NCBI GenBank assembly: GCA_030747075.1
Contig: JASLLL010000012.1
Location: 6,866-70,865, forward strand
DNA from: Gemmatimonadota bacterium
Lineage (GTDB): Bacteria > ARS69
Direction: 5' to 3'
DNA length: 64,000 nucleotides
Shown here piece after piece: positions 14,044 through 17,625 of this stretch (position 1 is the stretch's first letter; each line of letters opens with the position of its first letter). The translations under genes were made by a program, and so were the position numbers. A model generated the notes under the pieces. It worked only from the letters and a program-made list of their open reading frames with translations, ran no database searches and had not been told where the DNA came from.

Positions 14044-14358
14044 GTGGACGCCGGGTGGAGCGCGACAAGTGCGTCCACCCTCGCGCTCTCCGCCTTCCCC
14101 AACCCGGCCGGGTCGGGTACTGTGTTCGACTATTCGATCCCGGCGGCGTCCGGAGAGGGCCACGCCGAGATCACCGTCCACGATGTGGCGGGAAGAGTGG
14201 TTCGCGTCCTGTCCGGCGCACCCGGCGGTTCCGGACGGCATGCCGTTCCGTGGGACGGTCTGGACGCAAGCGGCCACTCCGTTCCCGCCGGAGTGTACCT
14301 CTGCCGGGTCCGGCACGCCGCCGGGTCCGCCACCGGAAAGGTGACGATCCTCCGATGA
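13957..14358 (+). pseudogene. 3' remnant of a sorted secreted protein (sorting domain only)
   Basis: Residues from about codon 33 on are a complete FlgD-Ig/type IX-like C-terminal domain (LSAFPNPAGSG, VHDVAGRVVRVL, WDGLDASG, GVYLCRVRHAAG, KVTILR). They are preceded only by a short stretch that is out of context. All other copies in the window end a protein of 500 residues or more, so this one has lost its body. No signal peptide or ribosome site is present. The stop overlaps ATG 14355 of the next gene (ATGA), showing that the lost gene once headed an operon with the decarboxylase-like gene. Confidence 0.6.
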
Positions 14359-15221
14359 TCCCCCTTCGCATACTGCTCGCTTCGGCGGTCCTCTTCGCGG
14401 GGACCGCCTTCGCGGCGGACGCACCCTCCGCCACCGGCGCGACGACCTACGGTTCTCTTCGCGAAGTCGTACGCGAAGGCCGCCTCGACGCCCGCGTGCG
14501 CCTGGACGAGATCACCCCCGGACCGCACACCTATGCCCTCGGCGCACTGGCGGACCTGGAGGGAGAGGTCACCATCGTGGATGACGAGATCTGGCTCTCG
14601 CGGACCGATGAGGACGGCACGGTCGTCACAGAGCGAATGCGAACCAGCGAGGCGGGTGCGGCCGCGCTCGTCGCGGCAAGAGTGGACGGATGGACGCGTC
14701 ACTCGGTCGGGCAGGATGTGCCGTTTGAGGAACTGGACGCTTGGATTCTGAGGAGTGCTCTTGTCGCGGGCGTGGACACTTCGTCCGCGTTCCCGTTCAT
14801 GGTGGGCGGGTTCGTGCGTGACCTCGACTGGCATGTCATCGTCGGAGATCGGCTGCCGCCCGGCGCGTCGTCCCACGAGGAGCACATGGCCACCGCCGTG
14901 CGCGACTCACTCGATGTGACCCACGCTACGCTCCTCGGCTTCCACTCCACCCGCCATCACGGCGTCTTCACGCACCACACTACCAACACACACCTGCATG
15001 TCGTCATGAAGAAGCCGAACGCGTCCGGCCATGTGGATGGAGTCACGGTCCCGGCAGGCGCATGGCTCCTTCTGCCGGAGCGCGCACCGGAAGTCCCGGA
15101 GGAAGACCCGACGGAGGCAGGCGAAGCGACCGACCCGACAGACGCAGGCGAAGCGACGGAAGCCGACGATGCCACCAACACGGAGGTCGGCGAGCAAGAA
15201 GCCGACCCGGAGGCGAACTAG
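14355..15221 (+). CDS. Secreted acetolactate-decarboxylase-like protein
   Basis: The 288-residue protein has a signal peptide (cleavage after AFA, residue 20) and a domain of about 220 residues matching alpha-acetolactate decarboxylase. It carries the [11 protein letters not shown] strand (Glu71), the zinc ligands His213 and His215 in THLHVV, and His226 in GHVDG. The enzyme family converts acetolactate to acetoin. Here the protein is exported, there is no acetolactate synthase nearby, and another family member with a new substrate is quite possible. The C-terminal 45 residues are an acidic Glu/Asp/Ala/Thr tail with a nine-residue repeat ([18 protein letters not shown]). The ATG overlaps the stop of the sorting-domain remnant, so its original upstream partner is lost. 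Its stop shares CTAG with the convergent gene. Confidence 0.7.
15117..15157 (+). repeat. Two 14-base direct repeats in the acidic tail
   Basis: GCAGGCGAAGCGAC occurs at 15117-15130 and 15144-15157, a period of 27 bases. It encodes the repeated AGEAT of the acidic tail of the decarboxylase-like protein. Such in-frame repeats change length easily by slippage, so tail length may vary between strains. Confidence 0.7.
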
Positions 15222-16732
15222 CGGAGGATCGTGACCTTCTCCATGGCCGATCCGGAGATCGTCCGCACACGGATAAAGTAAACTCCGCCCGCAACCTGTG
15301 TGCCTTGCGCGTCCTGACCGTCCCATGCAACGCGATGAGTCCCCGTCCGCTCGAAGACCTCTTCGGTGAGGTTCCGTACAACGCGTCCGTGGATGTCATA
15401 CACATCCACGCGAACGAGCCCGATCGAGTCCTCGCCGAGCGTGAACTGAACGCCTGCGCTGAGACCCACCGCCGGGTTCGGGTGAACGCTCAGAGAGAGC
15501 GGCGTGACCGCAGAGCCATCGGGCAGCGGGCCGATGCCTGTTCCGGCACCGCACAGGCTGCCATCTCCTTGATAAGTCCCGCTGTCCGCGGCGCAGATGG
15601 CCGCCGTCAGGACTTCGCAAGTGAGGTCGAGCAGGATGCAGGCTCCTTCGGCCATGTCACAGGCATCCCCGAATCCGTCTCCATCGCTGTCGATCTGGCT
15701 CGGATTGTAGATGTCAGGACAGTTGTCGCACGGATCACCGGCGCCGTCGTCGTCACGGTCCTCCTGCCACGGGTTGGGCCGCTCGGGACAGTTGTCTTCG
15801 GCGTCCGGCTTCCCGTCGAGATCCCAGTCCCCGGGTAGATCGACCAGTGGCACGACCAGCACTTCCCCGGAGCGCGGATCCGAGAACGCCACGACCGCCG
15901 CCGGCAGGAAGCGTTTCCCCACGGGTGCGTAGGCGATCCGGATGCCCATTTCCACCTCCGCGCCAAACTCCGCTTCCCAGACCCTGTTCGCGATGGCGTC
16001 CACCACACTTGCCCGTGGGAGAAGACTGAGCCCGGCGGGCACCTCAAAGCGCGGCCAGACAACGAGAAGCCGCGCAGGTGTCGCCAGGTTGGAAACCGCC
16101 ACTCGCACATGGGATTCAAACACCGGGAATCCGTTTGCGGTCCGCACCACGGTCACCAGCTGTTCCCGGTCGTGGCTCGGCTCCTCGCCGCCCGGACCCA
16201 CGGGAGTCCCGATCACCGTCGCGACGGAGACACCCGCGCGCTCCGCTGCGGGAATACCGAGCGCATCGCAGACTCCAAGTACCACCTGCTGCGCAACCCC
16301 CTGATCCACTGCGGAATGCGGCGAGGTGTCGAAGTCGAAGCGGCGGGTCTTGTTGGCCCATCGAACGCGCCCGATGCCGCGGTCGATCTTGACGAACTTG
16401 GTGTCTCCGGCGTCGTGCGCCTCGGTGAGCAGCCCTTCCGTCACGATGTCCCCGGGCGCGGGAAGATCATTCACCGCCAGCGCTACCTGCTGGACATCGA
16501 CGCTTGCGAGCCAGTCGGGGCCGGGCTGGACGTCGAGCATCCCGGAACTGTAGGCGGGAAGCGTGGACTCGATCTGGTTCTTGTAATCCTGAAGGGTGAG
16601 GTTGCGCGGAAGATCCTGCTCGGGCGGGGCCTCGTCCGCCATCACCCCGGGAGCCGCCGCAACAAGAAGAGCCCCGGCCAACAGTACGCGACAAGCCCGC
16701 GCCATCACGAATCTCACGCCACTTCTCCGCAT
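15218..16732 (-). CDS. Sorted protein with propeptide-like N-terminus and thrombospondin type 3 repeats
   Basis: The 504-residue protein starts at ATG 16732, which has GGGAG 8-9 bases upstream. An in-frame ATG at 16753 overlaps the preceding stop and is the alternative. After a signal peptide ([20 protein letters not shown]) residues of about 30-280 form a domain with a segment ([20 protein letters not shown]) like the fungalysin/thermolysin propeptide (FTP). Residues of about 290-350 hold two or three calcium-binding thrombospondin type 3 repeats ([32 protein letters not shown]). The last 80 residues are the sorting domain ([26 protein letters not shown]). It follows a caspase-like gene almost without a gap and may be its inhibitor, chaperone or surface partner; that role is inferred from order and the FTP-like segment. 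Confidence 0.75.
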
Positions 16733-16752
16733 GATAGAACTCCCGGTTGTCA

Positions 16753-17625
16753 TCAAGGGTGCGCTTTCGGGTCACAACCGGAGATGGAGATATAGCAGAA
16801 GTAAGTAGATCCCGGATCGGAGTAGACATAGTCGTACTCCTCGTTGCTGACACGGGACGACGCGTTGCTGGAGCTGTTCCCGGCGACCAGCGAAACCGGG
16901 CAGTGATCGTAACCCCAGGTCCAGAACCCGCCGCTGTACTGATTGTCGGCCCAGGACTCCGCGATCGAGATGTCGAAGGCGTCGTCGGAAAACCCGCTGT
17001 AGCGACCGTTGAAGAGCGTGCTGATCCACATGAGCCCGTAGAACCCGTTCACCTGATGCAGTTCGTTGTAGGCATTCATCCAGTTTGAATACCCTTCATT
17101 GAGGTCGCACATGCTGTGGCAGGACGACAGGTGCAGGAATTCCAGATCGTGGTCGCCCAGCTCCATGTGCGCCTGCCATGCGCCGCAGTTCCCGCTTCCC
17201 GATTCGTCCACGCGCACGCTTCCCCGCCATTCGCCCGGAGCGCCACCGTTGTGCGAGCCGTGCAGGGCGACCATCAGCGCATCGACATCGTCCACATTGT
17301 CGTTGGAATCATCGTCACCCCAACTGACGATGTCGTCGTCGGTGAACTGGCTGTCGACAATGGTGCCGTTCTTGTAGAAACCGTCCCGGGACCATGCCTT
17401 GGAACTGTGTCCACCCGGTGTCGATCCAGAATCGGTGAAGTCGTCGTACCAGGCGTCCGCCATGTTGTCCCATGAGGAACGAGTGCTGCCCGAGCAGCTG
17501 GAGTTCCACTTCGTCACAACGAGAACAAGCGCTTCCTTTTCGGAAGAGGAGGGAGCGCCCGCCGCAAGGGCGAGGACCGGCAGAAGTGTCGGGAGAGCGA
17601 TCGCGAAAACGAGGGAGCGAGTCAT
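16753..17625 (-). CDS. Secreted caspase-like (DUF6345-type) protein
   Basis: The 290-residue protein has a signal peptide (residues 1-22) and a single domain of about 260 residues resembling DUF6345, a family I associate with clan CD (caspase/gingipain-like) peptidases. Two signature blocks are present in the expected order: LHGSHNGG (His122 and His125) after a beta strand, then LHLSSCHS (Cys169) at the end of the next strand. These would form a His-Cys dyad. Six further cysteines could form disulfides. No sorting domain is attached; the gene downstream (start at 16732 or 16753) encodes one. A TGA-TATCCT extended -10 lies about 46 bases upstream. Peptidase activity is an inference from the two motifs; substrate unknown. 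Confidence 0.7.

What the first reader, a model, noticed from the sequence alone, without database searches (positions are those of the whole stretch)
15218..17625. Caspase-like secreted protein paired with a sorted TSP3 protein holding a propeptide-like domain
The His/Cys motifs LHGSHNGG and LHLSSCHS point to clan CD. The next gene, overlapping or a few bases away, carries an FTP-like segment, calcium-binding repeats and a sorting domain. As I recall, FTP-like and caspase-like parts can occur in one chain in related proteins, so here they may be split into protease and inhibitor or surface anchor. This could be an undescribed protease-immunity or activation pair.
Basis: inference. Interest (0 to 1): 0.6.

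Follow-up and report, generated by a model that had tools for sequence, protein, structure and literature searches.

The report
Caspase-like protease with partner propeptide gene
Two overlapping bacterial genes encode an exported, probably protein-cutting enzyme of the caspase superfamily and a separate "propeptide-like" partner that in many other bacteria is part of the same chain, which points to a widespread, undescribed way of keeping such an enzyme folded and in check.

Summary
P0001 (16753-17625, minus) is a Sec-exported DUF6345 protein. His122-Gly and Cys169 are invariant in all 66 aligned relatives. A confident model of a single-chain relative (pLDDT 87) places this domain in the clan CD fold (CHAT protease, gingipain, caspases, separase). 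P0002 overlaps it by one base (TGATG). Its N-domain is unclassified in Pfam but belongs to a superfamily whose fold resembles the YpeB PepSY region.

The link is conserved. In 71 of 72 assessable DUF6345 loci from at least seven bacterial lineages, the propeptide-like unit is fused in the same chain (N- or C-terminal) or encoded next door. Split partners co-vary (r 0.79). Closest relatives are Pseudoalteromonas and Cocleimonas pairs, whose partner lacks the TSP3 repeats and sorting tail, so those parts are local additions; this genome does encode a T9SS translocon (SprA).

Best reading: a caspase-fold cysteine peptidase with its propeptide in trans, acting as folding chaperone and inhibitor, here with a surface-export tail on the partner. 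Toxin-immunity is not supported. Activity, inhibition and the complex are untested. The library searched has no paper naming DUF6345.

The parts
16753..17625 (-). P0001: Sec-exported DUF6345 protein, clan CD (caspase-like) fold; candidate cysteine peptidase
   Evidence: fold of a single-chain relative
17260..17262 (-). Codon of His122 (motif ALHGSH), candidate catalytic histidine
   Evidence: invariant in 66 of 66; aligned with His544 of the L117 model, which sits just after a strand
17119..17121 (-). Codon of Cys169 (motif LHLSSCHS), candidate nucleophile
   Evidence: invariant in 66 of 66; aligned with Cys579 of the L117 model, which sits just after the next core strand
15218..16753 (-). P0002: exported partner protein, starts in the stop codon of P0001 (TGATG)
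15842..16624 (-). N-domain of P0002 (about residues 45-305): propeptide-like two-lobed (FTP/PepSY-type) unit
   Evidence: 25% identity over 257 aa to the Cocleimonas partner, E 9e-24; profile links; fold by transitivity
15653..15829 (-). TSP3-type calcium-binding repeats of P0002 (about residues 310-368)
   Evidence: PF02412, 30.1 bits against cut-off 25
15221..15487 (-). FlgD_ig / T9SS type-A-like C-terminal sorting domain of P0002 (residues 424-512)
   Evidence: PF13860 35.2 bits (cut-off 27), TIGR04183 23.1 (cut-off 23); P0002, mostly by this tail, matches about 94 places in the genome; SprA present

Best explanation
P0001 is an exported clan CD cysteine peptidase of the undescribed DUF6345 family. 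The N-domain of P0002 is its propeptide supplied in trans. The two are made together from overlapping genes and exported by Sec. The propeptide-like domain binds the enzyme, helps it fold and keeps it inactive, as FTP/PepSY propeptides do for thermolysin-type proteases and as YpeB is proposed to do for SleB. In this organism the TSP3 repeats and type-A sorting tail carry the partner, and perhaps the complex, through the type IX secretion system to the cell surface. Loss or cleavage of the partner would release the active enzyme. Shown computationally: conserved dyad, clan CD fold in a relative, propeptide-like fold in the same relative, conserved fusion or adjacency, co-variation, sorting tail, SprA in the genome. 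Inferred: catalysis, inhibition or chaperoning, complex formation, escort by the tail, trigger of activation.
For: Dyad invariant in 66 of 66 and in the 69-row alignment. AlphaFold2 model of the single-chain relative L117: pLDDT 87, pTM 0.88, His and Cys directly after successive core strands. Its DUF6345 part matches SAVED-CHAT (Z 13.6, rmsd 3.4, 177 aligned), gingipain RgpB (Z 12.4 and 12.3), caspase-3 (Z 11.4) and separase (Z 10.7); its N-part matches 5coz (Z 14.0, 239 aligned) and the YpeB C-terminal domain (Z 10.2, rmsd 6.1, 201 aligned). All partner subfamilies link up by profile comparison: window trio to G318-phylum partners score 83, those to the fused domains 56 and 41, against about 25 for unrelated or reversed controls. 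Two further divergent partners (L088, L107) join more weakly, score 38. Fused or adjacent in 71 of 72 assessable loci. Mantel r 0.79 over 34 split pairs, permutation maximum 0.27. Precedents: gingipain propeptides inhibit their clan CD enzymes (PMC3677877); YpeB, a PepSY protein from the sleB-ypeB operon, is needed for SleB stability and proposed to hold it inactive (PMC6660665, PMC13393411).
Against: No model of P0001 itself succeeded (pLDDT 33 with 11 rows), so its fold is transferred by homology. P0002's N-domain has no Pfam match and its fold is transferred through two profile steps. P0001 has no sorting tail of its own. Whether the partner covers the active site could not be seen. Two divergent paired members (L080, L081) appear to lack the HG and Cys motifs, so pairing can outlive catalysis.
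Confidence: 0.66

Rival explanations
1. Same pair, but the partner is mainly a folding chaperone or export escort and never a meaningful inhibitor; the enzyme is controlled elsewhere (for example calcium or autoprocessing).
For: FTP/PepSY propeptides chaperone as well as inhibit (established knowledge); the sorting tail sits on the partner, not on the enzyme, and SprA is present.
Against: Closest relatives have the partner without any sorting tail; conserved covalent fusion is typical of regulatory propeptides.
Confidence: 0.2
2. The DUF6345 protein is a caspase-fold transpeptidase (sortase-like, as PorU) or another acyl-transfer enzyme rather than a peptidase.
For: The C25-type PorU of T9SS bacteria is a clan CD sortase (established knowledge); the genome has T9SS and about 94 places matching the tail.
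Against: DUF6345 occurs in lineages with single-chain forms and as Pseudoalteromonas and Cocleimonas pairs whose partner has no sorting tail; only this genome of five held in its phylum has it although P0002-tail matches occur in all five.
Confidence: 0.07
3. Toxin or effector protease with an immunity protein.
For: Tight gene overlap and one-to-one pairing.
Against: The partner domain is fused to the enzyme in one chain in several lineages; both proteins carry Sec signals; no toxin-delivery domain was seen.
Confidence: 0.04
4. Non-catalytic caspase-fold scaffold (pseudo-enzyme) paired with a structural or adhesive protein.
For: Some divergent paired members appear to lack the dyad (L080, L081).
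Against: The dyad is invariant in 66 of 66 other members including P0001.
Confidence: 0.03

Closest known systems
DUF6345 (Pfam PF19872), family of unknown function
   Same: P0001 scores over the family cut-off and shares the invariant His-Gly, Cys and Gly
   Different: Pfam gives no function; the link to clan CD and to a propeptide-like partner is drawn here; the paper library holds no paper that names the family
Clan CD cysteine peptidases: CHAT, gingipain (C25), caspases (C14), separase (C50)
   Same: Fold and His-then-Cys order after successive strands; a conserved His/Cys dyad is used to define the clan (PMC4357240)
   Different: No sequence-level match to any of them; activity unproven
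Gingipain propeptides
   Same: A propeptide that inhibits a clan CD peptidase on a T9SS route (PMC3677877)
   Different: Gingipain propeptides are part of the enzyme's own chain; here the partner is a separate gene and its modelled relative resembles the YpeB/PepSY type instead
SleB-YpeB operon
   Same: An enzyme and a PepSY-type partner encoded as neighbours; the partner stabilises the enzyme and is proposed to hold it inactive (PMC6660665, PMC13393411); fold match 5boi
   Different: SleB is a cortex-lytic enzyme, not a caspase-fold protein; YpeB is membrane-anchored
FTP/PepSY propeptides of thermolysin-like (M4) and fungalysin peptidases
   Same: Weak matches of one relative to FTP and YcdB profiles and of another to PepSY; a chaperone-inhibitor role fits
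   Different: Attached there to zinc peptidases; P0002 itself does not reach any such profile
Single-chain DUF6345 protein of Deinococcus peraridilitoris (WP_015231519.1)
   Same: Propeptide-like part, Ig part and DUF6345 in one chain, as read from its sequence and a 27%-identity match to L065
   Different: In the window the two parts are split into overlapping genes, with TSP3 and a sorting tail on the partner

Membership tests
DUF6345 (PF19872) | Score over the curated family cut-off | tested here: met
   35.4 bits against 26.9; hmmscan did not report it for P0001, but an independent profile without near relatives gives 71 bits, best shuffle 8
Clan CD cysteine peptidases | Caspase-type alpha/beta fold | tested here: met
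   Met in the single-chain relative L117: Z 10-13.6 to CHAT, gingipain, caspases, separase over 165-205 residues. For P0001 itself only by homology; its own model failed
Clan CD cysteine peptidases | His then Cys dyad, each just after a core strand | tested here: met
   Invariant H122 and C169 in 66 of 66; strands 538-542 and 573-577 precede H544 and C579 in the model
Clan CD cysteine peptidases | Peptidase activity | not testable with these tools
   Needs purified protein
FTP (PF07504) / PepSY (PF03413) propeptide families | Sequence profile over the curated cut-off | tested here: not met
   No Pfam match for the P0002 N-domain; best relative 16.8 bits against 21 for FTP
FTP / PepSY propeptide families | PepSY/YpeB-type fold | tested here: inconclusive
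   Met by the N-part of L117 (5boi Z 10.2, rmsd 6.1; 5coz Z 14.0); the P0002 domain is tied to it through two profile steps and was not folded itself
FTP / PepSY propeptide families | Adjacent or covalent link to the enzyme regulated | tested here: met
   71 of 72 assessable DUF6345 loci
T9SS type A cargo (P0002) | C-terminal sorting domain | tested here: met
   TIGR04183 23.1 bits against 23, marginal; PF18962 18.4 against 27, below; FlgD_ig 35.2 against 27
T9SS type A cargo (P0002) | T9SS translocon SprA in the genome | tested here: met
   2023-aa frame, 550.7 bits over several pieces, cut-off 200
Toxin-immunity pair | Partner separable from the toxin and protective in the producer | tested here: not met
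   Partner domain fused to the enzyme in one chain in several lineages; protection itself was not tested

The most novel reading that the evidence does not exclude
P0002 is a portable propeptide that doubles as an export escort: an untagged caspase-fold protease with only a Sec signal crosses the outer membrane by T9SS because it is bound to a separately encoded inhibitor that carries the sorting domain and the calcium-binding repeats.
Probability: 0.25. Interest if true: 0.75.

Novelty: new variant of a known kind. Interest (0 to 1): 0.6.

Why it matters
It gives a testable identity to a widespread family with no assigned function (caspase-fold enzyme) and names its likely regulator. It extends PepSY/FTP-type regulators to clan CD enzymes, which to my knowledge is undescribed, and shows one module moving between N-terminal fusion, C-terminal fusion, downstream gene and upstream gene. 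If the escort reading holds, it also suggests how proteins without a sorting tail can use T9SS.

Tried and rejected
Folding P0001 from 11 rows failed (pLDDT 33), so the second and last job went to a single-chain relative with 69 rows. Alignments mixing split partners with the fused proteins placed the partners on the wrong domain and were not used. Sequence searches of solved structures gave no clan CD match and only a weak lead for the partner (3cyg, E 0.0096). Foldseek's own top list on the three-domain model is dominated by Ig folds; BFVD gave nothing usable. Plasmid and phage collections hold no close relative of the Pseudoalteromonas homolog, and no viral contig encodes one of P0001. Direct profile comparison of the window trio with the fused domains is not significant (scores 14-25); the link needs the G318-phylum partners as a bridge. 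One DUF6345-like locus (L046, below the family cut-off) has no partner.

Full report
WHAT IS THERE. On the minus strand, P0001 (16753-17625, 290 aa) and P0002 (15218-16753, about 511 aa) overlap by one base: the stop TGA of P0001 runs into the ATG of P0002. Both begin with signal-peptide-like sequences. P0002 has an N-domain of about 260 residues with no Pfam match, TSP3 repeats (PF02412, 30.1 bits) and a FlgD_ig / T9SS-like tail (PF13860 35.2 bits; TIGR04183 23.1, cut-off 23). P0002, mostly by its tail, matches about 94 places in this genome, so the tail is not specific to the pair. The genome encodes SprA, the T9SS translocon, so a sorting reading is credible. A gene on the plus strand converges on P0002 (14298-15221), so no third gene follows. 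No consensus promoter was found between the two genes, which says little.

P0001 IS A DUF6345 PROTEIN WITH A CLAN CD DYAD. A search of the window's genome with PF19872 finds it at 35.4 bits (cut-off 26.9) and finds no other copy. Ordinary hmmscan does not report it. A profile from relatives that excludes all near ones scores it at 71 bits against at most 8 for 200 shuffles. In 66 aligned DUF6345 proteins, His122, Gly123, Cys169 and Gly194 are identical in every one; the same four columns are invariant in the tool's own alignments of 57, 70 and 69 rows.

FOLD. P0001 alone could not be folded from 11 rows (pLDDT 33). A natural single-chain relative, L117 (propeptide-like part, Ig part, DUF6345), folded well with 69 rows: pLDDT 87, pTM 0.88. 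Its candidate catalytic His544 and Cys579 follow the strands 538-542 and 573-577. In the structural comparison the DUF6345 part matches activated SAVED-CHAT (Z 13.6), gingipain RgpB (12.4, 12.3), caspase-3 (11.4), caspase-7, caspase-6 and separase (10.7). The N-terminal part matches 5coz (Z 14.0, 239 aligned) and the YpeB C-terminal PepSY region (5boi, Z 10.2, rmsd 6.1). Clan CD is assigned by the order, type and setting of a His/Cys dyad (PMC4357240). Both features are met here; activity is not shown.

THE PARTNER. The P0002 N-domain aligns over its whole length to the gene next to the DUF6345 gene in a Cocleimonas MAG (25% identity, E 9e-24) and in Pseudoalteromonas sp. NBT06-2 (22%, E 2e-19). 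There the partner is 300-308 aa and has neither TSP3 repeats nor a sorting tail. So the conserved unit is enzyme plus propeptide-like domain, and the tail is a local addition. Profile comparison links the partner subfamilies: window trio to G318-phylum partners score 83; these to the main fused family 56, to the G259 fused family 41 and to the G092-phylum upstream partners 45; fused families to each other 74; G092-phylum subfamilies to each other 58 and 62. Unrelated or reversed controls reach about 25, apart from low-complexity self-reversals. Two divergent neighbours (L088, L107) join more weakly, score 38. The direct comparison of the window trio with the fused domains is not significant and relies on this bridge. 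Single relatives show sub-threshold matches to FTP, YcdB and PepSY.

CONSERVED LINKAGE. Among DUF6345 loci found by family search, the genome scan and the plasmid search, I counted by hand: propeptide-like part fused N-terminally in 23 and C-terminally in 11; encoded by the next gene downstream in 29 (window included; measured gaps -53 to +68 bases); encoded by the gene immediately upstream in 8, the four measured lying 11 bases before the DUF6345 gene or overlapping it. That is 71 of 72. The exception is L046, below the family cut-off. Not counted: three loci cut by contig ends, a few fragments, and L080, whose partner assignment is uncertain because of low complexity. In 34 split pairs the distances of the two proteins correlate (Mantel r 0.79, best of 5000 permutations 0.27), and both window proteins have the same nearest relatives, so the pair travels together. 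Only this genome of the five held in its phylum has DUF6345, while its nearest relatives are gammaproteobacterial, which suggests acquisition as a unit (inference).

HOW IT PROBABLY WORKS. Established precedents are gingipain propeptides, which inhibit their clan CD enzymes (PMC3677877), and YpeB, a PepSY protein from the sleB-ypeB operon, which is needed for SleB stability and is proposed to hold it inactive until it is degraded (PMC6660665, PMC13393411). By analogy the P0002 N-domain folds and restrains P0001 in the periplasm. The sorting tail on P0002 would take it, and possibly the complex, to the surface. Catalysis, binding, inhibition, escort and trigger are inferred.

AGAINST THE IMMUNITY READING. 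Covalent fusion in several lineages, export signals on both proteins and absence of a delivery module argue against toxin-immunity.

NOVELTY. The paper library (open-licence PubMed Central) has no paper that names DUF6345 or PF19872. The kinds of parts are known. The assignment of DUF6345 to the caspase fold and its general coupling, in cis or in trans, to a propeptide-like module are, to my knowledge, new.

Noticed in passing
L044:2987-3595, L052:3219-3540, L056:3083-3591, L057:2972-3550, L058:3003-3396; also downstream of the DUF6345 gene in L090, L095, L099, L100, L103, L104: A third gene, a small exported protein with a lipoprotein-like Cys signal (about 130-200 aa), often follows the pair; it could be a second inhibitor or an anchor. 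It is absent from the window.
   Followed up: partly
L048:1427-4186: One chain holds a papain-type peptidase (PF00112, 181 bits), a DUF6345 domain and the propeptide-like domain, joined by Pro-rich repeats.
   Followed up: no
L080:2-1729 and L081:1369-2121: DUF6345-like proteins that appear to lack the HG and Cys motifs yet are fused to or followed by a propeptide-like part: candidate pseudo-enzymes.
   Followed up: no
window 16753-17625: Plain hmmscan against Pfam misses DUF6345 in P0001 although a genome search with the same family scores it over the cut-off; such proteins may be under-annotated.
   Followed up: yes
window 14298-15221, plus strand: Exported protein with a weak resemblance to alpha-acetolactate decarboxylase (18 bits, cut-off 25) and an acidic repeat tail, convergent with P0002.
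   Followed up: no
G389 loci L051, L053, L055, L056, L057, L058: One genome of the G318 phylum carries six DUF6345 genes, four of them complete with a partner gene and two cut by contig ends: an expanded paralogous set.
   Followed up: partly
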